Positions 47,746 through 59,953 of a DNA stretch of 64,000 nucleotides are shown in pieces. Position numbers and translations under genes: made by a program. Below the pieces are notes generated by a model. The model worked only from the letters and a program-made list of their open reading frames with translations. It had not been told where the DNA came from and did no database searches. The DNA is from Dissulfurispira thermophila (GTDB lineage: Bacteria; Nitrospirota; Thermodesulfovibrionia; Thermodesulfovibrionales; Dissulfurispiraceae): assembly GCF_014701235.1 (NCBI RefSeq), contig NZ_AP022873.1, forward strand, positions 62,001 to 126,000, given 5' to 3'. The stretch's first letter is position 1, and every line of letters starts with the position of its first letter.

Positions 47746-47756
47746 AACAGAATATT

Positions 47757-47800
47757 GAATTGGTGAATTGGTGAATTGGTGAAGTGGTGAATGGGTGAAG
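47757..47800. repeat. 8-bp tandem repeat
   Basis: GAATTGGT is repeated three times exactly and about twice more with substitutions. It lies between the acetate operon and the duplicated cheA segment. Confidence 0.85.
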
Positions 47801-47826
47801 GGGGTAAATAGGCTTTAGGCTAATCT

Positions 47827-48553
47827 TCAGCTATGGAAAGCTGTGCCGCTTCCCAAAGCCGTCTCTATGCTTATGCTCCCTTTTAAATCCTCTACAATGG
47901 TCTTTTTCACGACATCCAGCCCCACTCCTCTGCCTGAGACATCGGTTACAATAGCGCTTGTGCTAAAGCCGGGCTGAAATATCAAGTCCATCAAAGCTAT
48001 ATCGGACATGGCTTCTATCTCTTCAGCAGTAAACATTTTTTTGCGCAATGCCTTTTCTTTTATTTTTTCTTTGTCAATTCCCCTTCCGTCGTCTCTTACA
48101 TCTATAAGCACACTTGCAGCATCATAAGATGCTGAAAGCCTTATAGTGCCTTTTGCCGGTTTGTTAGCATTTTTTCTTTCATCAGCAGGCTCTAATCCAT
48201 GATCTATTGCATTTCTTATTAAATGCAAGATAGGCTCTGCAAGCCTGTCCACTATCTGCTTGTCAAGTTCAATCTCTGAGCCTTCAATAATTATGTCTAT
48301 ATCTTTACCAAGTGTTCTTGATAAGTCTCGCACCATCCTTGGCATTGAGTCAAAGACCATGGATAAAGGAACCATTCTCAATGTGAGCGCAGTTGAGCGC
48401 AGTTCATCAGAAAGCAAGCTGCTTATGGTGCTGTAATCATTAATCATGGAGACTAAATCTTTGATATCAGAAATAAGTGATGTAAATGCAGTTACAATGG
48501 TATTACTTTGTGCCTTTTGACTTATAAGTTCAAGCTGTCTTTTAGCAGCACTT
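47827..48553 (-). pseudogene. Internal fragment of cheA (duplicate)
   Basis: This segment encodes residues about 215-455 of the CheA at 49256-51493, covering the dimerisation domain and most of the ATPase domain, with no difference seen by eye over 722 bases. It has no histidine phosphotransfer domain, no start region and ends with four foreign bases and a stop. It cannot make a working kinase. The upstream end is fused to a fragment of rarA on the other strand. Confidence 0.9.
47832..48553. repeat. 722-bp perfect direct repeat, copy 1
   Basis: Identical by line-by-line comparison to 50128-50849, in the same orientation, offset by 2296 bases. The identity starts and stops abruptly on both sides. 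Confidence 0.95.
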
Positions 48554-48851: not shown

Positions 48852-49229
48852 TTATTTTTTCAAAGCAGCTTTAACCGCTGAAAGTATATTAACTTCAATA
48901 TTGTCATCCTTTACAACATAATCAAATGCCCCTTTAACAATAGCTCCATCCGCCACATAACAATCGTCTATCCCGCTTAAAGCAAGAACCGGCAATGTGA
49001 AACCAGACTTTCTGATTCTATCAATAAGCTCATAGCCGTTCATCTCAGGCATATTTATATCGGTAATTATAAGGTCCAAGTCACTGTTGACAGTCACGGC
49101 ATTTAAAGCGTCTCTGCCGTTTTCGCATGAAACCACATCATAGCCTTCAGACTCCAAAATCACGCCTATCATCTCCCTCACAAAAGGATCGTCGTCAACC
49201 AAAAGAATTTTTACTCCTTGTGCATCCAT
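48852..49229 (-). CDS. CheY-like single-domain response regulator
   Basis: A 125-residue receiver domain. The acidic pocket is VDDDPF near residue 12, the phosphoacceptor is in [13 protein letters not shown] near residue 57, and the conserved lysine is in YVVKDDN near residue 107. It is very similar to the receiver at the start of the hybrid kinase at 58002-59552. It lies 26 bases after cheA, ends the chemosensory operon and could carry phosphate from CheA. Confidence 0.92.
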   Translation of the reverse strand: MDAQGVKILLVDDDPFVREMIGVILESEGYDVVSCENGRDALNAVTVNSDLDLIITDINMPEMNGYELIDRIRKSGFTLPVLALSGIDDCYVADGAIVKGAFDYVVKDDNIEVNILSAVKAALKK

Positions 49230-49255: not shown

Positions 49256-51493
49256 TTATGTTTGTTGAAATCCAACCAGATTCTGAAGTGTCTCTATCAG
49301 ATTATTCTGGTCAAAAGAGCCTTTGACTATATAGGCGTCAGCACCAACCCTGATCCCCCTCATCTTGTCGTCTTCTTTACTGCGAGATGTTACTATGATT
49401 ATAGGTGTATCTTTATAACTCTCCTCTGCCCTTAATCTCTCTGTAAGAGAAAAACCATCCATAAGAGGCATCTCCACATCTGTAATCACAGCATCATATT
49501 TGAATTTCATTGCCTTATTGAGTCCGTCCATTCCGTCCTCGGCAAGGTCAACTTTATAGCCATATGATTCAAGTATGCTCTTTTCTATTTCACGGGTATT
49601 TATAGAGTCATCAACTACTAAGATATTCAGAGCCCTTTCCTGTATCTGTCTTTCTTTAACAACAGAACCTTTCAAATTTTTGATTGCATCTATCACAGCC
49701 GAGATATTGAGGACATTGACGACCTTATTTCTACCAGAAATCGTAACACCTACTGACATGCCTGTCTTTTTTATGCACAAAGGAAAAGGCTTTATAACCA
49801 TATCTTCTTCATCAATAAGCTCGTCAATTATAAGACCTAATTTCTCTGCTACAGCATGGATTATCATAATCAAAGGCTCTCTGATAGTCTTCTTCATTTT
49901 TTGTGCTTGCTGTGCTTTATTGTCAGGACATTTCAGAATATCGCTCAGCCTTTCTACAGGGATAAATTCATTTCTTAATCTTATAGCCTTTTTATCTAAG
50001 ACATCCATAAATTCTGTCTCAGGCACTCTTAATACCTCTTTTACATACTGAGCCGGAATCGCAAATGTAATGCCCGAAGCAGATATTAAAAGTAGGCGCA
50101 TTATAGCGAGCGTCAAAGGCAGTCTTATATGGAAAGCTGTGCCGCTTCCCAAAGCCGTCTCTATGCTTATGCTCCCTTTTAAATCCTCTACAATGGTCTT
50201 TTTCACGACATCCAGCCCCACTCCTCTGCCTGAGACATCGGTTACAATAGCGCTTGTGCTAAAGCCGGGCTGAAATATCAAGTCCATCAAAGCTATATCG
50301 GACATGGCTTCTATCTCTTCAGCAGTAAACATTTTTTTGCGCAATGCCTTTTCTTTTATTTTTTCTTTGTCAATTCCCCTTCCGTCGTCTCTTACATCTA
50401 TAAGCACACTTGCAGCATCATAAGATGCTGAAAGCCTTATAGTGCCTTTTGCCGGTTTGTTAGCATTTTTTCTTTCATCAGCAGGCTCTAATCCATGATC
50501 TATTGCATTTCTTATTAAATGCAAGATAGGCTCTGCAAGCCTGTCCACTATCTGCTTGTCAAGTTCAATCTCTGAGCCTTCAATAATTATGTCTATATCT
50601 TTACCAAGTGTTCTTGATAAGTCTCGCACCATCCTTGGCATTGAGTCAAAGACCATGGATAAAGGAACCATTCTCAATGTGAGCGCAGTTGAGCGCAGTT
50701 CATCAGAAAGCAAGCTGCTTATGGTGCTGTAATCATTAATCATGGAGACTAAATCTTTGATATCAGAAATAAGTGATGTAAATGCAGTTACAATGGTATT
50801 ACTTTGTGCCTTTTGACTTATAAGTTCAAGCTGTCTTTTAGCAGCACTTTCCAGAGATTTTATATCATGCAGTATAGTTTTTGCCTTACTTTTAGTAGAG
50901 ACTATCTCTTCCATGAGCTTTATAAGCCTATCGAGCTTATTTGCGCTTATTCTGAGTGTCTCAGAAGTAGCAGGAGGTGTCTTTACAGTGGTTTTTACTT
51001 CTACTTTTGGCTCAATGCTGCTTGTAGGCAATGCCTGCGGCACAGCAGGCTCTGTTTTTGGCGATTCTGACTGAGGGGCGGGTTTATCTGCTGTTATATC
51101 AGTTTTTGATCCCTTTGCTGCAGCAGCAAGGGCTTCGCATAGTGCAGTGTTGTCATCAGTGATTTCCTGTCCTAAAGCTGTCTTTTCTACCATGTTTGAG
51201 ATGGCATCAACTGCTGAAAAAATAAGATCAAAAGTTTCTTTAGATAGAGTAATCTTGCTATCTCGCACGGCACCAAGCACATCTTCAAGCTTGTGGGCTG
51301 TCTCTGATATTTGCGTAAGCTTCATCATTCTGGATGAGCCCTTGATAGTATGGGCAGAACGAAAAACAGCATTTATGGTCTCTTTGTCATCAGGATTCTT
51401 TTCAAGTAAAACAAAGCCATCATTCAATTTATTTATATGTTCCCGCGCCTCTTCAACAAAACGGGCAATGAATTTTTTCATGTCAATAGCCAT
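49256..51493 (-). CDS. cheA: CheA hybrid histidine kinase with C-terminal receiver
   Basis: The central kinase of the chemosensory array, 745 residues. An HPt domain with His48 in SAHTIKGSSRMM is followed by a proline-rich linker (about 130-170), a dimerisation domain (about 175-255), the ATPase domain with HLIRNAIDHGLE and DDGRGID, a CheW-like domain (about 470-600) and a receiver (about 617-740, DAVITDVEMPLMDG). The C-terminal receiver is typical of Wsp-like and Pil-Chp-like systems and may act as a phosphate sink. No separate P2 domain is apparent. The middle third is duplicated 2.3 kb downstream. Confidence 0.95.
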   Translation of the reverse strand: MAIDMKKFIARFVEEAREHINKLNDGFVLLEKNPDDKETINAVFRSAHTIKGSSRMMKLTQISETAHKLEDVLGAVRDSKITLSKETFDLIFSAVDAISNMVEKTALGQEITDDNTALCEALAAAAKGSKTDITADKPAPQSESPKTEPAVPQALPTSSIEPKVEVKTTVKTPPATSETLRISANKLDRLIKLMEEIVSTKSKAKTILHDIKSLESAAKRQLELISQKAQSNTIVTAFTSLISDIKDLVSMINDYSTISSLLSDELRSTALTLRMVPLSMVFDSMPRMVRDLSRTLGKDIDIIIEGSEIELDKQIVDRLAEPILHLIRNAIDHGLEPADERKNANKPAKGTIRLSASYDAASVLIDVRDDGRGIDKEKIKEKALRKKMFTAEEIEAMSDIALMDLIFQPGFSTSAIVTDVSGRGVGLDVVKKTIVEDLKGSISIETALGSGTAFHIRLPLTLAIMRLLLISASGITFAIPAQYVKEVLRVPETEFMDVLDKKAIRLRNEFIPVERLSDILKCPDNKAQQAQKMKKTIREPLIMIIHAVAEKLGLIIDELIDEEDMVIKPFPLCIKKTGMSVGVTISGRNKVVNVLNISAVIDAIKNLKGSVVKERQIQERALNILVVDDSINTREIEKSILESYGYKVDLAEDGMDGLNKAMKFKYDAVITDVEMPLMDGFSLTERLRAEESYKDTPIIIVTSRSKEDDKMRGIRVGADAYIVKGSFDQNNLIETLQNLVGFQQT
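50128..50849. repeat. 722-bp perfect direct repeat, copy 2 (within cheA)
   Basis: Partner of 47832-48553. Here the flanks continue the cheA frame, so this copy is the source. Confidence 0.95.
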
Positions 51494-51525: not shown

Positions 51526-53022
51526 TTATAAGGCCTTTTTCAGCTTTTGTAGATTATGTCTGCACAAATGCGCAATCTCCTCTGCTGAAAAAGTCAGAGG
51601 GAAAAACGTAAGCCCATGTCCATCTACTGCAGTCTTTTTGATTAAGTTCATGGCAATCTCATACTCTTTGCATGATTTATTTAAATCTCCTCTATCCCTG
51701 TGTAGTTCGGCAAGATAAAAATGCGCAAGCCAGCATGATGAACTGATATACACTGCCTCCTTAAATCTATTTATTGCAGCATCATAATCTTCTTTTATTT
51801 TTGAGATTATTCCAAGCAGCAAGATACTCTCAAGACACCACCTATCTCTCTGGATATTCATCTGACAAATGTGCTCAGCTTCGTCAAACTGACGCCGATT
51901 AAGCAAAATGCTTGCTTTTAGAGTGTTTGCCTTTTTCATATAAGGCTCAATATTTAATATCTCATCTATTGCCTTTAGTGCATCATCATATCTTTTATCA
52001 TTTGCCATTGACAGCGCCTTGTTAAACAATGCATTGCAATCAATTTTTTCTTTACTTTCATGCCGTTGTCTGGATTCGGATTCACATGGAGGCTCAATCT
52101 TTATATGTTTTTTAGAAGGCTTTTTTATAGTCTGTGAAATGCGATTAGCAGGACAGGCATTACTTATAAAATCATTACTCCTATCAACATCCATAATATT
52201 TGCTTCATACTGCTTAATCTCACTTTTCCTATAAACAAAAACACCATCAATCTCCTCAAGTCTCATTGTGCCTATGTTATGAGCCATTGTTTCAGTAGCA
52301 CTTACTATGATAAAACCATCTGGATTCAACACCTCTGAAAGTTTTTCAAAGATCATCTTCTGGACATCAGACTCAAAATAAATAGAGACATTGCGGTAAA
52401 AAATAACATCCATATTGCAGAGATAAGTAGGGTAAATATTGTTTAAAAGATTAAAGACATAGAAATTGACATTGTTTCTAAGTTCGTCCTTAATCCTATA
52501 GCCGCCATTGTTAAGCTTAAAAAAATACTTATCCTTTAGCTCAACAGGAAAAGTCCTGAAAGAAAAATTTGAATAAATTCCTTCTTTAGCCTTATATACT
52601 GCATCGCGGTCAATATCTACAGCAGAGATATAAAATTTATTCAATGCAGAGTTGCCAAATTTCTCAAGCACTGCCATCAATATAGAGTATGGCTCCTCAC
52701 CTGTGGAGCATCCCGCACTCAATATCCTGATCTTTTCACTACTGTTTTTCGTTTGAAGCAACTCAGGAATAAGTCTTTCTACAAAGAGATGAAGATGAAA
52801 AGGCTCTCTGTAAAAATAGGTTTCATTTACTGTTATAAAATTAACCAGGCTGTTAAATTCCTCTTTGTCTGAGGTAACAAGGAGATAATAATCTTCATAA
52901 GACTTTGAGCCTGTTGACTCCATACGACTGCGTACGCCTTTTTCAAGATTATAATCGCGTATATCGTTAAAGCGGAAGCCGCATTTATCCCTAAAGAGGT
53001 TCTTAAACGGAGTTAATCCCAT
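51526..53022 (-). CDS. cheR: CheR methyltransferase with TPR repeats (WspC-like)
   Basis: Methylates glutamates on the chemoreceptor with SAM. The 498 residues begin with the CheR helical domain (NETYFYREPFHLHLF near residue 86) and the SAM-binding ILSAGCSTGEEPYSI near residue 120, followed by the sequence NVSIYF near residue 212 in the usual C-RNV-x-IYF place. After a variable linker come three to four TPR-like repeats (about 325-470), as in WspC of Pseudomonas. The first 20 bases overlap cheB. Confidence 0.93.
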   Translation of the reverse strand: MGLTPFKNLFRDKCGFRFNDIRDYNLEKGVRSRMESTGSKSYEDYYLLVTSDKEEFNSLVNFITVNETYFYREPFHLHLFVERLIPELLQTKNSSEKIRILSAGCSTGEEPYSILMAVLEKFGNSALNKFYISAVDIDRDAVYKAKEGIYSNFSFRTFPVELKDKYFFKLNNGGYRIKDELRNNVNFYVFNLLNNIYPTYLCNMDVIFYRNVSIYFESDVQKMIFEKLSEVLNPDGFIIVSATETMAHNIGTMRLEEIDGVFVYRKSEIKQYEANIMDVDRSNDFISNACPANRISQTIKKPSKKHIKIEPPCESESRQRHESKEKIDCNALFNKALSMANDKRYDDALKAIDEILNIEPYMKKANTLKASILLNRRQFDEAEHICQMNIQRDRWCLESILLLGIISKIKEDYDAAINRFKEAVYISSSCWLAHFYLAELHRDRGDLNKSCKEYEIAMNLIKKTAVDGHGLTFFPLTFSAEEIAHLCRHNLQKLKKAL

Positions 53023-54058
53023 GATTTTGCACCTGTTTTAAAGCCGCTATATCAACTAAATCCCGGCTTATTTTTTCTATCGGAAGTATCCTGTCAATAC
53101 ACCCGCTGTCAATTGCAGCCTTATTCATACCAAAAATAACAGATGTCTTTTCATCCTGTGCTATAGTTACACCACCTGATTTTTTTATCTTTCTCATGCC
53201 TTCTACGCCGTCGGTTCCCATGCCGGTAAGGATTATGCCGATACAATTTTTTCCATATACATCAGCAACCGATGAAAGGAGCATATCACACGAAGGATGA
53301 TATATGTCTTTCTGTTGCCTTTCTATAAATGTTATTGTTTTTGATGGACTTACCTTCATGTGCATTTCAGACGGCGATATATAAACAGTAGCCGGAGTCA
53401 AAAGATCTCCATCGGATGCTACTTTCACATTTAATTTAGAAACCTTATTAAGCCATTCAGCCATGCCATGGACAAAACCATCTGAGATGTGCTGGGCTAT
53501 AACAATTGGAAAAGGGAATTTGCTCGGTAAAGAAGAAAGTATAATTGATAAAGCCTTTGGACCTCCTGTAGAAGAGGCTATAGCAATAATCCCGCCTTCT
53601 TTTTCAAAGGAAAAAACAGCCGCCTCCAGTGGCTTAATGCCTGCAGAACGACGCCTCCCTGCAATATGAGTGACTACCTTAACCCCTGAAAGCAGCTTTA
53701 TTTTGGCGATAAACTCCTTTGCGCCATTTAGATTGACTTCGGGCTTCTGGACAAGGTCAAGAGCACCTCTCGATATCGCATCATATGCTGTCTGGGCATC
53801 GTTTTTTGAGGTTACTACAAGTATAGGCACAGCATTCTCTGACATGATATGTTCTATTGCATCAAGTCCGTTCATGACAGGCATTTCAATATCCATTGTT
53901 ACGATATCTGGTTTTAATTCTTTAACCATTTGCACGGCCTTACTGCCGTTTGAAGCCTCGCCCGCTATTATTATGTCTTTATCAGCAGAAAGCATCTCTA
54001 TGATGAGCTCTCTTATAAGCCGACTGTCATCAACAATCAATACCCTGATAGGTCTCAT
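53003..54058 (-). CDS. cheB: CheB chemoreceptor methylesterase
   Basis: Removes receptor methyl groups and deamidates glutamines. The 351 residues have an N-terminal receiver (phosphoacceptor in IVTMDIEMPVMNG near residue 56) and a C-terminal esterase with the triad serine in IASSTGGPKAL, histidine in IAQHISDGFVHG and aspartate in LTGMGTDG. It overlaps the receptor gene by four bases, giving a tight mcp-cheB-cheR-cheA series. Confidence 0.95.
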   Translation of the reverse strand: MRPIRVLIVDDSRLIRELIIEMLSADKDIIIAGEASNGSKAVQMVKELKPDIVTMDIEMPVMNGLDAIEHIMSENAVPILVVTSKNDAQTAYDAISRGALDLVQKPEVNLNGAKEFIAKIKLLSGVKVVTHIAGRRRSAGIKPLEAAVFSFEKEGGIIAIASSTGGPKALSIILSSLPSKFPFPIVIAQHISDGFVHGMAEWLNKVSKLNVKVASDGDLLTPATVYISPSEMHMKVSPSKTITFIERQQKDIYHPSCDMLLSSVADVYGKNCIGIILTGMGTDGVEGMRKIKKSGGVTIAQDEKTSVIFGMNKAAIDSGCIDRILPIEKISRDLVDIAALKQVQNHGINSV

Positions 54059-55377
54059 TCCGCCTCTACCTTGAAACTATCAATTATCTCTTTCATATCT
54101 CTGGACAGCCTTGCAAGGTCCACACATGCCTGACTTATTTGATTTACGGAGCCTGCAGTCTGGCTGGCGCCTGTTGAAATTTCTCTTAATGCTGCCAGCA
54201 CCTGATCGCTTGCTGTTTTCTGCTGCTGGGTTGAAAGAGATATCTGTTTGGCAGCATTTGTTGTTTCTTGCGCTGCATCAACTATTGCAAACAATGTCTG
54301 CGCTGCTTCGCTTGAGTGTTCCATCCCTTCCTGAATGCCTTTTGAGCCCTTTTCAGAAACAATAACAAGGCGGTCAATAGCATCTTGAATTTCATTAATT
54401 TTTGCCTCTATCTCTCTTGTTGATTCCATAACGCTGTCGGCAAGCCGTCTGATCTCTACTGCAACAACACCGAATCTCTTGCCCGCCTCTCCAGCGCTTG
54501 AAGCCTCAAGGGCAGCGTTAAATGCTATGAGCTTGGTCTGATCTGCTATCTTATTTATCAACTCCATTATCTTGGTTATTTCCTTGGATTTTCGTCCCAG
54601 ATTAACTATTTCCTCAATACTTTGCTGGTTGTCTGCTTGTATCTCTTGCATCTTCATAATAACAGTCTCTACCGCAGTTGCACCATTTTTGGTGTCTTCC
54701 CAAGTTTTTGTCGCTATATCTACGACAGATTTGGAATGCTCTGCTATTTGCGATGAAGACGCAGACAGTTCTTCCATAGTTGATGTAATCTCTGTCACTG
54801 CTGCTGATTGCTCTGATGCAACAGCCGCTTGCTGTTCAACAGAAGCTGATATCTCACTTGCATATGAGTTGAGCCTTATTGCAGTATCGGAAATCCTTTT
54901 GATAACACTATGCAGATAAGCAATAAAACCATTAAACCATATAGACAGTTTTCCTATTTCATTATGTGTGGTCTCAGGTATCCTTATAGTCAGGTCATTG
55001 TCAAAACCTTCTATTGCCGCTGAGATATCTCTTGCAGGTCTGCTAATGAATTTATCCGAATAATGCTTAATGAAAAAAACAGCTATCACCAATATCAGAG
55101 TGGAGATGATTAAATGTTTAACAATAAAATGTGAGATTTCTTTTTTTGCCTTTTCTGTCTGAACAAGTGCCTTTGCATTAATATCAACACTGCGGATGTT
55201 TTCAGACTGAAACTCCTTAAATGCAGTAACCCACATCTCATTGTTTGTCTTTATTTCCGATATTGTCAAATAAGCATGTACAATAGAAATGACAATAATT
55301 GGAACTATTACGAAGAATAAAATCTGCGATTTCAATGACTCCCTTATATCAAACATCTGTCTTAAAAAAGACTGCAT
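54055..55377 (-). CDS. Methyl-accepting chemotaxis protein
   Basis: The only receptor in the operon, 440 residues. Two membrane segments (about 18-38 and 90-110) enclose a small periplasmic region of about 50 residues, followed by a HAMP domain (about 110-165) and the signalling coiled coil with the hairpin tip KIADQTKLIAFNAALEASSAGE split around residue 285. The small sensory part resembles WspA-type receptors more than ligand-binding PAS or Cache receptors. CAGGAGG precedes the ATG. Confidence 0.93.
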   Translation of the reverse strand: MQSFLRQMFDIRESLKSQILFFVIVPIIVISIVHAYLTISEIKTNNEMWVTAFKEFQSENIRSVDINAKALVQTEKAKKEISHFIVKHLIISTLILVIAVFFIKHYSDKFISRPARDISAAIEGFDNDLTIRIPETTHNEIGKLSIWFNGFIAYLHSVIKRISDTAIRLNSYASEISASVEQQAAVASEQSAAVTEITSTMEELSASSSQIAEHSKSVVDIATKTWEDTKNGATAVETVIMKMQEIQADNQQSIEEIVNLGRKSKEITKIMELINKIADQTKLIAFNAALEASSAGEAGKRFGVVAVEIRRLADSVMESTREIEAKINEIQDAIDRLVIVSEKGSKGIQEGMEHSSEAAQTLFAIVDAAQETTNAAKQISLSTQQQKTASDQVLAALREISTGASQTAGSVNQISQACVDLARLSRDMKEIIDSFKVEAE

Positions 55378-55409: not shown

Positions 55410-55802
55410 CTAAGCTGTTTTTTTAAGCCTATAAAAATCCACCAGCAGTATAATGCCGATGTCTGTCAATACTGCACCCCAAACTGCTCTTGAGCCGAGC
55501 ATCTTGATTATAAATGGCATCGGCTTGATGTCTGCTATGTTTACATCTAAAATATCTTCGGGGTCCTCTATGATAATCAAAGGCATCTCTGATGCCTTGA
55601 GCCTAATGGCTTTAGGACGGATAAAGCTTACAGCCCTTTCGCCAAATGGAATAATCTCATCAAGTTTTTTGATGTTAGCGCTGCTTTCTTGTGCTGTTTG
55701 CATATCCAACATCTCAATAATTTGCTCAGTATCAATTCCCATCTTTACTCCTGATACAGTAAAGACAAGTATGCTTAGATACTGAAGTTCGTTATCAAAC
55801 AA
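55410..55802 (-). CDS. CheW-like protein, divergent
   Basis: A 130-residue protein with the outline of a CheW SH3-like domain: LVFTVSGVKMGIDTEQIIEML at the start and GSRAVWGAVLTDIGIILLVDFYRL at the end. The usual glycine-rich ING/R-G motif is replaced by IRLKASEMPLIII, so it is divergent. It lies between the canonical CheW and the receptor gene and may be a second coupling protein or a receptor-specific adaptor. Confidence 0.7.
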   Translation of the reverse strand: MFDNELQYLSILVFTVSGVKMGIDTEQIIEMLDMQTAQESSANIKKLDEIIPFGERAVSFIRPKAIRLKASEMPLIIIEDPEDILDVNIADIKPMPFIIKMLGSRAVWGAVLTDIGIILLVDFYRLKKTA

Positions 55803-55823: not shown

Positions 55824-56339
55824 TCATTGCATTATCTTTAAAAATATCTTTTCAACATCTAAAATAGTGACGCTTTTATCTCTATATATAATTTCGCCTG
55901 CTACATATTCCTTAACTGCATTGTTAAGAGTAGAGAGAGGCTGTTTTGTTGAACTCGTAGGAATATCTAATACATCTTCCACGGCATCAACAAGCACACC
56001 AGCGCGTACAGCATTTTTTTGGATAATAGCAATGCGAGAGCTTAAAGAGGTCTCCGAATCAGGTAATCCTAAAAATTTATTTATGCTTAAAACAGCCTCT
56101 ATGTCGCCCCGTAAATTGATCACACCCATGACAAAATCTGCAGTTGCCGGCACATAACAGATTTCTGGGACATGGAGTATCTCCTTAACATCCTCGCCAT
56201 AAAATCCATAGTAGCTGTTGTGCAGCAAGAACACAACAATCTTTACTGTGGCCTCGTCCACATCAACAATCTCTCTCTTTGAACTGCGCCTTTTGAGTTC
56301 ATCAAGGATAATATCGCTTTTATTTCTTAACTCTTCCAC
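55824..56339 (-). CDS. CheW coupling protein
   Basis: Connects receptor and CheA. The 171 residues include a charged N-terminal helix of about 25 residues and the CheW fold: VVFLLHNSYYGFYGEDVKEIL, VMGVINLRGDIEAVLSINKF (the ING/R-G motif) and VAGEIIYRDKSVTILDVEKIF. The first 13 bases overlap the end of the GGDEF gene upstream. Confidence 0.9.
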   Translation of the reverse strand: MEELRNKSDIILDELKRRSSKREIVDVDEATVKIVVFLLHNSYYGFYGEDVKEILHVPEICYVPATADFVMGVINLRGDIEAVLSINKFLGLPDSETSLSSRIAIIQKNAVRAGVLVDAVEDVLDIPTSSTKQPLSTLNNAVKEYVAGEIIYRDKSVTILDVEKIFLKIMQ

Positions 56340-57985
56340 TCTACCTCCGATGCCTTTATAACCTTATTGCGGCCGCTGTGCTTGGCTTCGTATAAAGCTT
56401 TATCTGCAGCACTGCATATATCAACTGCGTTATCATAAGCTGGATAGCCTGCTATGCCTGCGCTAAATGTGCAATAAAATTCACTGCCGTTAGCTTGATG
56501 TTTTATCTTTGAAAAAGCTGTTCTTATTTCGTCAAGTATCCTCATGGCATTGTCAACATCAGTGTCTGAGAAAACAATTGCAAATTCCTCGCCGCCATAT
56601 CGTCCAACAATGTCTGTTCTTCTCAGTCTGTGCTGTAAAAGCCCTGATAGACTAACTATGACCCTGTCTCCAATAAGGTGTCCATAAGTATCGTTCACAG
56701 ATTTAAACTTATCAATATCAATCATTGCAAATGCCATCACACCTTTTTGACGCCGCGCCCTATCAATCGCAGCATCAAGCCCTTCTTTTATCATTGTGTG
56801 ATTAAGCAGCCCCGTAAGACTGTCTTTCCCCATAAAGGACCTGATGATGCGCATCCTGTCCGCGCGTATGCTTACAGAAGATATAAGAATTTCTGGATTT
56901 ACAGGTTTTGCAAGAAAATCATCGCCTCCCATACGCATAGCATTCATCTGCTTATCTATATCCGTCTCAGTAGATAAGAAAACAATCGGGATGCTGAAAT
57001 AATCATCCATCTGCCTGATTGCCTTTGCAAGTATATCTCCGTTATATTGAGGCATATATTTATCCATGAGTATCAAGTCCGGGTTAAACTCAGATAAAGC
57101 ATCAAATGCATTTAATGGATTATTCAGTATCTTTGTATCCATGCCGCCTTCTTCAAGTATTGCTGCATAATACTGGGCAAGCTCTACCTCGTCATCAATT
57201 ATAAGTATGCGGTATGGTTTTATTTCCTTTCGCGCTATTAAAATATCCAATCTCTCTATAAGTGAATCAATCTTTACCGGCTTTGTAAGATATGCCTCAC
57301 CACCTGCCTGTACAGCTTCTATACGCGCAAAAATATCACTCCTTGCTGATATAAAAACAACCGGTATTCTTTTTTGAAAATATCTCTGCATCTCTGACAC
57401 AGCTTCTATTCCAGCGACCTCTCCCTCTTTAAATATAATATCCATAACTATCACATCTGGCGGCTCTTTTAATGCTGCCATTTTAAAGTCATCAATATTG
57501 TCAAATGGCATGACTTTATAACCAAAATGACTTATCTGCGACTCAAGTGTCTGAAGGAGATGAGGATCATCTTCTACCAGAAATACCTTTTTTACTGAAT
57601 TTTCATCAGACGAATGTGCTGACAAAACAGCATGAGACTTAACAGCATCGGCATCCACAATCTTTGTATTGTTTATATGATGTTCAAGCAGCACAATATA
57701 TTCTCTAATCTCCGCAAGTGCGGTAAAATCAATGGGTTTATTATTTTCAATAATTCCTTTTAACAATTGCTCAAACTGTCTTGCATTATCAGCTATCTCT
57801 TTAAAGCCAAATGAAGCGGATGTGCCTGCAATGCTATGGACAAGTCTATGCAGATTTGCCATATCAGCATCGCTGTGGCAAGCATCCTTTATCTTGCTAT
57901 AAATATTGTTTACATCATTGAGTTTTGCAGGAAGGGTTTTAATATAGCTTTCCCTAAGCGCCTTTAATTTATCCCTTACACTCAT
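56327..57985 (-). CDS. HPt-REC-REC-GGDEF diguanylate cyclase response regulator
   Basis: A 552-residue output protein. An N-terminal HPt domain has the phosphohistidine in LVHSIAGTSASFG (His50). Two receivers follow (about 132-250, aspartate in VIVMDIIFKEGE; about 256-375, aspartate in LILMDKYMPQYNG), then a GGDEF domain (about 385-550) with an intact active site GRYGGEEFAIVF and an inhibitory site RRTD five residues earlier. It should make cyclic di-GMP when phosphorylated, like WspR, with extra phosphorelay domains. It lies between the hybrid kinase and CheW genes. Confidence 0.93.
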   Translation of the reverse strand: MSVRDKLKALRESYIKTLPAKLNDVNNIYSKIKDACHSDADMANLHRLVHSIAGTSASFGFKEIADNARQFEQLLKGIIENNKPIDFTALAEIREYIVLLEHHINNTKIVDADAVKSHAVLSAHSSDENSVKKVFLVEDDPHLLQTLESQISHFGYKVMPFDNIDDFKMAALKEPPDVIVMDIIFKEGEVAGIEAVSEMQRYFQKRIPVVFISARSDIFARIEAVQAGGEAYLTKPVKIDSLIERLDILIARKEIKPYRILIIDDEVELAQYYAAILEEGGMDTKILNNPLNAFDALSEFNPDLILMDKYMPQYNGDILAKAIRQMDDYFSIPIVFLSTETDIDKQMNAMRMGGDDFLAKPVNPEILISSVSIRADRMRIIRSFMGKDSLTGLLNHTMIKEGLDAAIDRARRQKGVMAFAMIDIDKFKSVNDTYGHLIGDRVIVSLSGLLQHRLRRTDIVGRYGGEEFAIVFSDTDVDNAMRILDEIRTAFSKIKHQANGSEFYCTFSAGIAGYPAYDNAVDICSAADKALYEAKHSGRNKVIKASEVEWKS

Positions 57986-58001: not shown

Positions 58002-59552
58002 TCACTTTACAGGCAGCGTAAATATAAAACAGCTGCCCTTTCCAATCTCGCTTTCTGCCCATATCTTCCCGCCGTGAGATTCTACTATCTGCTTACATAT
58101 TGGCAGTCCAAGACCTGTGCCTCTTGGTCTATCTGTAAGTGTCTCGCCAACTTGCTTGAATTTCTCAAATACCTTTTGCAAATCATCAGGTGCAATGCCT
58201 ATGCCCGTATCAGTAACAGCTATTTCGATAACACGCTTGCCATCGCTTGTACTGTCTTTTTCTGAAATAATACTTGCCCGCACAGTAACCGAGCCGCAAT
58301 CAGTGAATTTCACTGCATTAGAAAGAATGTTTATAAGGACCTGAATCAAACGATCACCGTCCCCTATGATATCAGGTATGGAATCATCTATATTGATTTT
58401 TAGTTCAAGCTGCTTTTGTGCAAAAAGCGGCGCTGTAGCGTCTATTGCCCGTTGAATAATATCGCTCATACTGCAGAGTTCCTCTTTTAATTGCATTTTG
58501 CCTTCTTCTATTTTCGATATATCCAGCACATTGTTAATCAGATTAGTAAGACGATTACCTTCTGTTATTATAATGTCTATATTGCCGGCTACCTGCTCAA
58601 CGGTCTTTCTGAGCCTTGAGTCGTCCTTGTCAACACACGGAAAAATCACAGTTTCAAGTCTATTTTTTATTATCTTTGCAAAGCCTATTATGGAAGTAAG
58701 AGGAGTCCTGAGTTCGTGAGAGACAACTGAAATAAAATCATTTTTCATCCTGTCAACTTCTTTTTCAAAAGTAATATCCCGCAATATAACAAGCGCCCCT
58801 ACATGGCCGCTGTCTTTATCCACTGCGAATTGTTTTCTTATAGAGGTAGCAACAGCCCGTACTATCTTGTTGGTGGAAATATCTATATCAGCAGTATAAA
58901 CATCATCCCTGTTCATACGGCTTTTATCAAGCAGAGAGGTTAGCGCTTCATCAAACATCTCGCTATAACCTCTGCCTATAATTGCATTACCCGATAGATT
59001 AAAGAGCGAGCTTATAGCCTGATTGGCAAGGGTTATTTTGCCGCTCTCGTCAATAACCAAAAGACCATCAGGCATAGTATTAATAATAGCCGTTAAATAC
59101 GAAAGGGCATTTTCAAGTTCTTCTTTTTTGTGAGAAAGATCAGTAATCAACTGCAGATTAGCCTGGCGGAGGTGTTGTTTTTCAAGGGTTTTTTTTACAG
59201 TAATATCTATAGTGTCCTGTATAAATTCGTCTTTAATAAGATAATCATCAGCACCGATGTTAAGAGCGGCCAGCATCATATCTATCTCTTTATTACTGCT
59301 CAAGACTATAATCGGCACGTTGAATGTCTTGCTCCTGAGTTCCTTTATCAGTTGCAATCCATCCATCTCCGGCATATTAATGTCAGTTATAATTAAATCT
59401 ATAGAGGGATCATCAGCATATCTTTGCAGGGCGGCTTTTCCATTGTCAGCATCACTGACAACATACCCTTTATCATCAAGCACTACCGACAGCATTTCCC
59501 TTACAAATATGTCGTCGTCAACTAGAAGGACCTTTTGTTTTTGCTCATTCAT
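58002..59552 (-). CDS. REC-PAS histidine kinase
   Basis: A 516-residue soluble kinase. An N-terminal receiver (about 5-122, phosphoacceptor in [13 protein letters not shown]) is followed by a short coiled coil, a PAS domain (about 150-265), a dimerisation helix with [17 protein letters not shown] (phosphohistidine near residue 290) and an ATPase domain ending [14 protein letters not shown]. There is no membrane segment. It could pass phosphate to the HPt-REC-REC-GGDEF protein encoded 16 bases downstream. Confidence 0.92.
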
Positions 59553-59560
59553 AATATAAA

Positions 59561-59953
59561 TTACAGCCCTAATACCTCTTTTGCTTTTTCTATCACTTCA
59601 TCTGGATTAAAGGGTTTGGTCATATAAATATCGCATCCTACATCTGCCCCCCGTTGTTTGTCAAACTCTTGTCCTTTTGCTGTCAACAATATAATAAAAA
59701 CATCTTTCATACCGAGGTCGTTTTTTATCTTATGGCAGACATCAAATCCATTCATACGGGGCATCATAATATCAAGGAATACAAGATTTGGGTTTTCGCT
59801 TTTTATTATATCAAAAGCGTCTTCTCCGTTGTCGCAATTGAGCAGTTGCACGCCCTCGTCTTCGAGTTCTTCGAGCGTTTGCTCCAGCAGCAGCCTTATA
59901 TGTGGCTCATCGTCTGCTATCAATATCTTACGCATCTCATCCTCCTTTTGCAT
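59561..59953 (-). CDS. Single-domain response regulator
   Basis: A 130-residue receiver with DDEPH near residue 16, the phosphoacceptor in [15 protein letters not shown] near residue 62 and the conserved lysine in [11 protein letters not shown] near residue 113. No output domain. It lies eight bases before the hybrid kinase start and six bases after the HD-GYP gene. Probably a phosphate carrier or sink. Confidence 0.92.

What the first reader, a model, noticed from the sequence alone, without database searches (positions are those of the whole stretch)
56327..57985. Diguanylate cyclase with its own HPt and two receivers
HPt-REC-REC-GGDEF is a compact phosphorelay in one chain. Each of the two kinases nearby (CheA-REC and REC-PAS-HK) could feed it. 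The active site GGEEF and the RxxD inhibitory site are both intact, so it should be a regulated active cyclase.
Basis: partly seen in the sequence, partly recalled or inferred. Interest (0 to 1): 0.5.

Follow-up and report, generated by a model that had tools for sequence, protein, structure and literature searches.

The report
Chemosensory-linked phosphorelay cyclic-di-GMP synthase
This is an enzyme predicted to make the bacterial signal cyclic-di-GMP, which most likely receives its switch-on phosphate from a chemotaxis-like sensing pathway encoded next to it; the same kind of enzyme and gene cluster was described before in Halomonas, so it is a known kind found in another phylum.

Summary
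In detail: 56327-57985 (-) encodes a 552-residue HPt-REC-REC-GGDEF protein with H50, D182, D308, RRTD and GGEEF present. It belongs to a Wsp-like chemosensory operon (two CheW, MCP, CheB, CheR-TPR, CheA-REC, CheY), with a REC-PAS-HK, a second lone REC and a GAF-HD-GYP protein alongside. This cluster type was printed for Halomonas titanicae in 2018 (PMC5907407); here it is in a phylum inferred to be Nitrospirota, with permuted gene order.

Added on mechanism: among 65 aligned relatives that keep the HPt histidine, the second receiver is intact in 65, but the first is a pseudo-receiver in 32 and lacks its Asp in 12. With an intermediary receiver nearby or fused, H50 is present in 52 of 52 rows; without one, in 11 of 34 (rule framed post hoc). 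Seven relatives carry a receiver fused before the HPt. CheA-REC is the recurrent kinase (23 loci); a same-strand REC-HK occurs in 2 of them, its receiver in the clusters' CheY clade.

Best model: CheA-P1 to an intermediary receiver to H50 to D308 to GGDEF. Phosphotransfer is inferred.

The parts
56327..57985 (-). Diguanylate cyclase HPt-REC1-REC2-GGDEF, 552 aa
   Evidence: Pfam; motifs; AlphaFold2 model
57695..57955 (-). HPt domain (residues 11-97), phosphorylatable H50
   Evidence: Pfam Hpt E 3.9e-10; H50 invariant in the 35-sequence alignment A1, whose members I chose
57236..57589 (-). REC1 (residues 133-250), D182; intact here, pseudo-receiver in 32 of 65 H50-bearing rows
56873..57208 (-). 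REC2 (residues 260-371), D308; intact in 65 of 65 H50-bearing rows
56363..56824 (-). GGDEF domain (residues 388-541), RRTD I-site and GGEEF A-site
49256..51493 (-). CheA-REC kinase (P1 with AHTIKG at 47-52, no P2 match in Pfam, kinase core, CheW-like, C-terminal REC)
   Evidence: Pfam; motifs; CheA-REC with the cyclase in 23 loci incl. window
48852..49229 (-). Stand-alone CheY-like receiver next to CheA, same clade as the receiver between CheA and the cyclase in relatives
   Evidence: Pfam; REC tree clade of 24, support 0.991; best hit is that receiver or the REC-HK in 5 of 6 loci compared
51526..53022 (-). CheR-TPR methyltransferase
   Evidence: Pfam
53003..54058 (-). CheB (REC-methylesterase)
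   Evidence: Pfam
54055..55377 (-). MCP (signalling domain; HAMP match below the curated cut-off); short segment between two apparent membrane helices, read by eye
   Evidence: Pfam; sequence
55410..55802 (-). Short CheW-like protein (CheW3 type)
   Evidence: weak Pfam CheW, below cut-off; hits the CheW3 genes of L112 and L113 but nothing in L031, L172, L179, L188
55824..56339 (-). CheW
   Evidence: Pfam
58002..59552 (-). REC-PAS-HisKA-HATPase kinase; receiver belongs to the CheY clade of these clusters
   Evidence: Pfam; tree
59561..59953 (-). Second stand-alone receiver, of a different type
   Evidence: Pfam; nearest to CheYs of L119, L130, L124
59960..61411 (-). GAF-HD-GYP putative c-di-GMP phosphodiesterase, HD and GYP motifs present
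   Evidence: Pfam; motifs

Best explanation
The gene is the output enzyme of a Wsp-like chemosensory pathway that controls c-di-GMP instead of a flagellar motor. A membrane receptor with two CheW proteins regulates CheA; CheA autophosphorylates on its P1 histidine. The phosphoryl group passes to an intermediary receiver (the CheY 48852-49229 and/or CheA's own C-terminal receiver), from there to H50 of the cyclase's HPt, and from H50 to D308 of REC2, directly in front of the GGDEF domain. Phosphorylated REC2 drives the GGDEF dimer into its active arrangement; the product shuts it off at the RRTD I-site. REC1 is mainly a structural partner of REC2; where intact, as here, it may be an extra phosphate sink. 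CheR-TPR and CheB give adaptation, and the HD-GYP protein may remove c-di-GMP. Shown here: domain content, intact residues, operon context, conservation pattern, co-occurrence. Inferred: every phosphotransfer step, its direction, the activation step and the physiological output.
For: Domains and motifs. CheA-REC with the same cyclase in 23 loci including the window; H50 kept in 23 of 23 of these and REC2 intact in 23 of 23. Over 92 aligned rows, 65 have H50: REC2 quintet intact 65/65, REC1 intact 33/65; Fitch changes 15 for REC1 pseudo-receiver status against 2 for REC2. H50 against an intermediary receiver nearby or fused: 52 H50+/receiver+, 11 H50+/receiver-, 0 H50-/receiver+, 23 H50-/receiver- (Fisher 6e-13, rows not independent). 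Fused form REC-HPt-REC-REC-GGDEF in 7 loci; in a tree of 179 receivers from 35 chosen loci, 6 cyclase-borne receivers and 5 stand-alone CheYs of hybrid-kinase loci form one clade, support 0.994; five of the 6 are labelled N-terminal, the sixth (L124) was numbered as REC1 by the script and I take it to be the N-terminal one. REC1-REC2 and REC2-GGDEF spacings are near-fixed (9-10 in 92 of 92; 28 in 89 of 91) while HPt-REC1 varies from 18 to 58 in the 65 H50 rows: a tethered HPt on a rigid REC-REC-GGDEF body. REC2 carries D/E355 (65/65), R374 (64/65) and R377 (63/65), placed like the acidic/Arg pair of the activated receiver dimer of DgcR and PhoB (passages of PMC8041772; the residue match is mine).
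Against: No kinase or cyclase assay of this protein was seen. In the window the cyclase lies at the other end of the operon from CheA and its CheY, and a REC-PAS-HK is directly upstream (16 bp gap). In the partner test the window row itself was scored 'receiver present' through the REC at 59561, which is not of the CheY clade; CheA and the CheY lie beyond the 4.5 kb limit. REC1 is fully intact in the window and in 10 of 10 CheA-linked loci of the inferred Pseudomonadota set, so its chemistry may matter. Ten rows with at least 3 kb on both sides keep H50 with no intermediary receiver seen (L173, L035, L183, L187, L197, L199, L042, L043, L044, L132). The intermediary-receiver rule was framed after seeing the map, some loci give two rows, and parsimony gives only 6 H50 losses, one of them (L045) a contig-edge artefact. 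AlphaFold2 domain placement was too weak (pTM 0.53 and 0.48) to support any docking.
Confidence: 0.66

Rival explanations
1. The REC-PAS-HK directly upstream is the main kinase: it phosphorylates REC2 (or REC1) directly or through its own receiver, and CheA controls that kinase or something else. (The rivals are not all mutually exclusive with the main model, so the odds do not sum to one.)
For: The HK gene lies 16 bp from the cyclase gene and has H279 in VSHELRTP. In relatives L118, L121, L128, L131 a plain GAF-histidine kinase lies near an HPt-less or HPt-dead cyclase, so this cyclase family can plausibly be driven directly.
Against: Only 2 of the 23 CheA-linked loci have a same-strand REC-HK (window, L031). 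H50 is intact in the window, whereas in the plain-kinase clade it is gone. The HK's receiver is in the CheY clade.
Confidence: 0.2
2. The relay runs inside the cyclase: CheA-P1 phosphorylates REC1, which passes the phosphate to HPt and on to REC2.
For: REC1 is complete in the window and in all 10 CheA-linked loci of the inferred Pseudomonadota set; the flexible HPt tether could reach both receivers.
Against: REC1 lacks at least one catalytic residue in 8 of 13 CheA-linked loci of the window's phylum although H50 and REC2 stay intact, so REC1 cannot be the general donor.
Confidence: 0.18
3. The HPt works backwards, draining phosphate from REC2 to another receiver (a reset or sink), while CheA phosphorylates REC2 directly as WspE does to WspR.
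For: Multistep relays with an Hpt are described as reversible (passage of PMC12632262). WspR has no HPt (passages of PMC5907407; its phosphorylation by WspE is recalled). The same co-occurrence with a spare receiver would be expected.
Against: Loss of H50 goes with absence of a seen intermediary receiver and, in one clade, with a plain kinase, which fits a forward relay at least as well; no data here separate the directions.
Confidence: 0.2

Closest known systems
Chemosensory cluster 2 of Halomonas titanicae KHS3 and its HPt-REC-REC-GGDEF cyclase (PMC5907407; abstract, section 26 and passages read)
   Same: Same cyclase architecture with phospho-residues, A- and I-site; same gene set: MCP, CheB, CheR-TPR, CheA-REC, CheY, CheW2, short CheW3.
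   Different: Window gene order is permuted (cyclase before the cheW genes, CheA and CheY at the end), with REC-PAS-HK, a second REC and HD-GYP genes beside it; phylum inferred as Nitrospirota, whereas section 26 of the paper describes Proteobacteria only.
Wsp pathway (WspA-F, WspR) of Pseudomonas
   Same: CheA with C-terminal REC, CheR-TPR, CheB, two CheW, MCP, cyclase output (partly recalled; passages of PMC5907407).
   Different: WspR is REC-GGDEF with a long helix and no HPt; cluster wsp has no CheY gene.
PleD of Caulobacter (receiver, pseudo-receiver, GGDEF; PDB 1w25, 2v0n)
   Same: REC-REC-GGDEF core; ten best Foldseek hits of the model by E-value (TM-scores low, 0.25-0.33).
   Different: PleD has no HPt, and there the first receiver is phosphorylated and the second is the pseudo-receiver (passage of PMC12632262). 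In the present family the first is the one that decays: a mirror image.
DgcR of Leptospira biflexa (REC-GGDEF; PDB 6zxb, 6zxm)
   Same: REC2-GGDEF half; 6zxb 30% identity over 295 columns in Foldseek, 6zxm best profile hit among PDB sequences.
   Different: One receiver, no HPt; activated through phosphorylation of that receiver by a kinase (abstract of PMC8041772).

Membership tests
H. titanicae-type chemosensory cluster 2 | Cyclase with HPt-REC-REC-GGDEF, all phospho-residues present | tested here: met
H. titanicae-type chemosensory cluster 2 | Gene set MCP, CheB, CheR-TPR, CheA-REC, CheY, CheW2, short CheW3 | tested here: met
   CheW3 rests on a sub-threshold Pfam match and on hits to CheW3 of L112 and L113 (2 of 6 loci compared); no Halomonas sequence itself was compared
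H. titanicae-type chemosensory cluster 2 | Gene order MCP-CheB-CheR-CheA-CheY-DGC-CheW2-CheW3 | tested here: not met
   Window order is DGC-CheW2-CheW3-MCP-CheB-CheR-CheA-CheY, a circular permutation; the paper reports permuted clusters too
H. titanicae-type chemosensory cluster 2 | MCP of length class 40H | not tested
   no length-class count was made
Wsp pathway proper | WspR-type REC-GGDEF output without HPt | tested here: not met
   HPt and second REC present
Alternative-cellular-function (ACF) chemosensory pathways | CheR-TPR and a multidomain response regulator in the cluster | tested here: met
   criterion from section 9 of PMC3447774
PleD-type REC-REC'-GGDEF | First receiver the phosphorylated one, second a pseudo-receiver | tested here: not met
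   REC2 intact 65/65, REC1 pseudo 32/65 among H50-bearing rows; both intact in the window. Five HPt-less spirochaete-named rows do have a damaged REC2
Active diguanylate cyclase | GG[DE]EF active site and RxxD I-site | tested here: met
   GGEEF 464-468, RRTD 455-458
Active diguanylate cyclase | Makes c-di-GMP from GTP | not testable with these tools
   needs an enzyme assay
Four-step His-Asp-His-Asp phosphorelay | Phosphotransfer through an intermediary receiver to HPt and then to a terminal receiver | not testable with these tools
   only conservation and co-occurrence support

The most novel reading that the evidence does not exclude
In these clusters the small CheY is not a motor-type output but a Spo0F-like shuttle that carries phosphate from CheA to the HPt of a cyclase whose first receiver is turning into a pseudo-receiver, so a chemoreceptor array drives c-di-GMP synthesis through a true four-step relay. 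The relay is kept or lost as a unit when the kinase is swapped, and the CheY slot is rewired by fusion to other outputs (histidine kinase, SpoIIE phosphatase).
Probability: 0.4. Interest if true: 0.55.

Novelty: new member of a known kind. Interest (0 to 1): 0.36.

Why it matters
In 2018 the Halomonas authors knew of no characterised cyclase with this domain organization (passage of PMC5907407). The comparative pattern here (REC2 intact wherever H50 is kept, REC1 expendable, HPt tied to an intermediary receiver, fusions of a receiver to the cyclase) turns an open wiring question into a short list of point mutants. It also places the system in a phylum beyond the Proteobacteria discussed in section 26 of that paper and offers a mirror image of the PleD layout.

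Tried and rejected
A literal 'two kinases feed one enzyme' reading was set aside as the main model: a same-strand REC-HK is present in 2 of 23 CheA-linked loci. A REC1-centred relay was set aside as the general rule because REC1 is degenerate in 32 of 65 H50-bearing rows. Structure: I hoped the fused REC-HPt-REC-REC-GGDEF of L119 would show the receiver docked on the HPt, but pTM was 0.48 and no model coordinates were in the Python box. The second lone REC (59561-59953) was first taken for the cluster's CheY; the tree places it near CheYs of L119, L124 and L130. A scan of the phylum of L035's genome found 1 of 198 genomes at E <= 1e-70, the centre itself. Literature: no paper held the string HPt-REC-REC-GGDEF. 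One search (Halomonas titanicae KHS3 with diguanylate cyclase) listed 2 papers, the 2018 one and one with a single mention; of the 5 papers only the 2018 one held 'Halomonas'. One search (nitrospir with chemosensory terms) found 13 papers, 8 shown, of which one held 'nitrospir' (twice) and it was not opened. 'Proteobacteria only' rests on section 26 of PMC5907407 and these searches of an open-licence library. Also opened but not relied on: passages of PMC7288161 and PMC9981736. Rows left out of the 92-row alignment: L115 (cyclase split in two frames, not mended), L167 (duplicate of L035), and ORFs under 225 bits. The 65 H50 rows include two whose output is a kinase, not GGDEF (L133 second copy, L134). 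CheA-linked L115 and the cut contig L175 are not in the 23.

Full report
Observation. The ORF at 56327-57985 (-) is 552 aa and Pfam reads Hpt, two receivers and GGDEF. H50, D182, D308, RRTD and GGEEF are present, and both receivers carry all five catalytic residues in this protein. AlphaFold2 on a 35-sequence alignment gives the expected domains (mean pLDDT 86, pTM 0.53), and the best Foldseek hits by E-value are PleD, then DgcR and WspR.

Surroundings. The gene is part of a run of same-strand genes: GAF-HD-GYP, REC, REC-PAS-HK, the cyclase, CheW, short CheW, MCP, CheB, CheR-TPR, CheA-REC, ending with a lone CheY-like receiver at 48852-49229. That is a Wsp-like chemosensory cluster of the alternative-cellular-function type. 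The genome (one contig, 2,370,875 bases) has 11 GGDEF places and one other near-full-length CheA-like place (C1:1373642-1375438, 33% identity). The phylum is inferred: a same-family genome (G116) has a contig of the same length and match position as the contig of 'Nitrospirae bacterium GWB2_47_37'.

Relatives. The protein search of 395 genomes of the phylum matched all 395 at E <= 0.001 (many only through REC-GGDEF parts); the listing shows 24 matches above 320 bits including the window's own, 21 of them over most of the length and 3 from about residue 122-134 onwards. In the phylum of L036's genome (inferred Pseudomonadota from the contig's name, Magnetococcales), 43 of 299 genomes match at E <= 1e-70; in the phylum of L035's genome, 1 of 198. 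Neighbourhoods were taken from 26 and 40 regions and, with 80 named loci, mapped with profiles that I built from window domains. Twenty-three loci, the window included, have CheA-REC with the cyclase: 13 of the window's phylum, 10 of the other. A stand-alone receiver of 120-138 aa lies immediately beside the cyclase in 10 of those 10, and also beside it in hybrid-kinase loci L034, L171, L176, L177, L178 and L192. In the window's relatives the CheY slot can instead hold REC-HK (L031) or REC-SpoIIE (L120 and L125 by Pfam; L114, L122, L123, L129 have a REC protein of the same size in that slot, not tested with Pfam), in L120 with a HATPase_c_2 protein, a STAS protein and an MshEN-T2SSE ATPase before the cyclase. 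In a tree of 179 receivers from 35 chosen loci, the window CheY and the receiver of its REC-PAS-HK fall in one clade of 24 CheY-slot receivers (16 lone, 8 fused; support 0.991).

Conservation test. Of 92 aligned family members, 65 have H50. In these REC2 is intact in 65 of 65; REC1 misses one or more of five residues in 32 of 65 and the Asp in 12 of 65 (pseudo-receiver as defined in a passage of PMC12632262, which also gives background rates of 0.9% missing His in Hpt domains and 2.0% missing Asp in receivers). In CheA-linked loci REC1 is a pseudo-receiver in 8 of 13 of the window's phylum and 0 of 10 in the other. Twenty-seven rows lack H50; REC2 is damaged in five of these, all HPt-less and on spirochaete-named contigs. 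On a FastTree of the REC2-GGDEF columns, Fitch changes are 6 for H50, 15 for REC1 status and 2 for REC2 status. One of the six H50-lacking clades, L045, is a cut contig.

Partner test. I asked whether H50 goes with an intermediary receiver (CheA-REC, hybrid kinase, lone receiver under 180 aa within 4.5 kb on the same strand, or one fused to the cyclase). Of 86 rows with enough flank or with such a receiver seen: H50 with receiver 52, H50 without 11, no H50 with 0, no H50 without 23; with at least 3 kb on both sides (76 rows): 43, 10, 0, 23. The Fisher values (6e-13 and 5e-12) ignore relatedness, some loci give two rows, the rule was framed after seeing the map, and the window row is scored through the REC at 59561. 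In the clade L118/L121/L128/L131, sister to the CheA-linked group of the window, the HPt is absent or carries Q in place of H, and the kinase nearby is a plain GAF-HK. Counter-cases exist: L043 and L044 keep H50 beside a kinase without REC (Pfam done for L043; L044 by my profiles only).

Mechanism. Near-fixed REC1-REC2 and REC2-GGDEF spacing and a variable HPt tether, with the points above, favour CheA to an intermediary receiver to HPt to REC2. The direction and each transfer are inferred. c-di-GMP targets are unknown; the genome has 6 MshEN and 5 PilZ places.

Known or new. The cyclase and cluster type are in print for Halomonas (abstract, section 26 and passages of PMC5907407), where the authors noted 83 proteins of this layout, permuted clusters, and that to their knowledge no cyclase of this domain organization had been characterised. 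What is added here: the phylum, the REC1/REC2 asymmetry (the reverse of PleD), the tie between HPt and an intermediary receiver, the fused form, and the placing of the REC-PAS-HK receiver in the CheY clade. I saw none of these in the parts of the papers that I read; the paper's supplements were not read.

Noticed in passing
window 47832-48553: An exact 722-bp copy of part of the cheA gene (50128-50849, kinase core) lies just beyond the operon, next to what looks like the 3' end of a rarA-type gene (named from memory) that is 76% identical to C1:1277907-1278194; a recent duplication or an assembly artefact.
   Followed up: partly
L118 5214-7472; L121, L128, L131: HPt-less or HPt-dead relatives of the cyclase lie near a 752-778 aa REC-bearing protein; the one tested with Pfam (L118) is MshEN-T2SSE-zinc ribbon-REC, an assembly ATPase with a domain that in other proteins binds c-di-GMP (recalled).
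   Followed up: partly
L120 10802-14499 and L125 9015-12705: Between CheA and the cyclase: a REC-SpoIIE phosphatase, then in L120 a HATPase_c_2 protein, a STAS protein and an MshEN-T2SSE ATPase; suggests a partner switch and a pilus-type output wired to the same pathway.
   Followed up: partly
L168 2982-5441, L169 7982-10483, L187 10867-13329: A tandem second gene of 819-833 aa beside the cyclase; the one tested (L168) is HPt-REC-REC-GGDEF-EAL, i.e. the same input on a possible phosphodiesterase.
   Followed up: partly
L133 14819-16879, L134 8813-11638, L135 8891-10936: HPt-REC(-REC) input joined to a histidine kinase instead of GGDEF.
   Followed up: no
window 47746-47831: A short repetitive stretch (gtgaattggtgaa-like) that accounts for 31 of the 34 matches, short places spread over the genome.
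   Followed up: no
L191, L193, L194, L196, L198, L200, L201, L203, L204, L205: A clade of relatives (10 of 10) with the HPt histidine replaced and REC1 degenerate; an MCP gene lies next to the cyclase in 9 of the 10.
   Followed up: no
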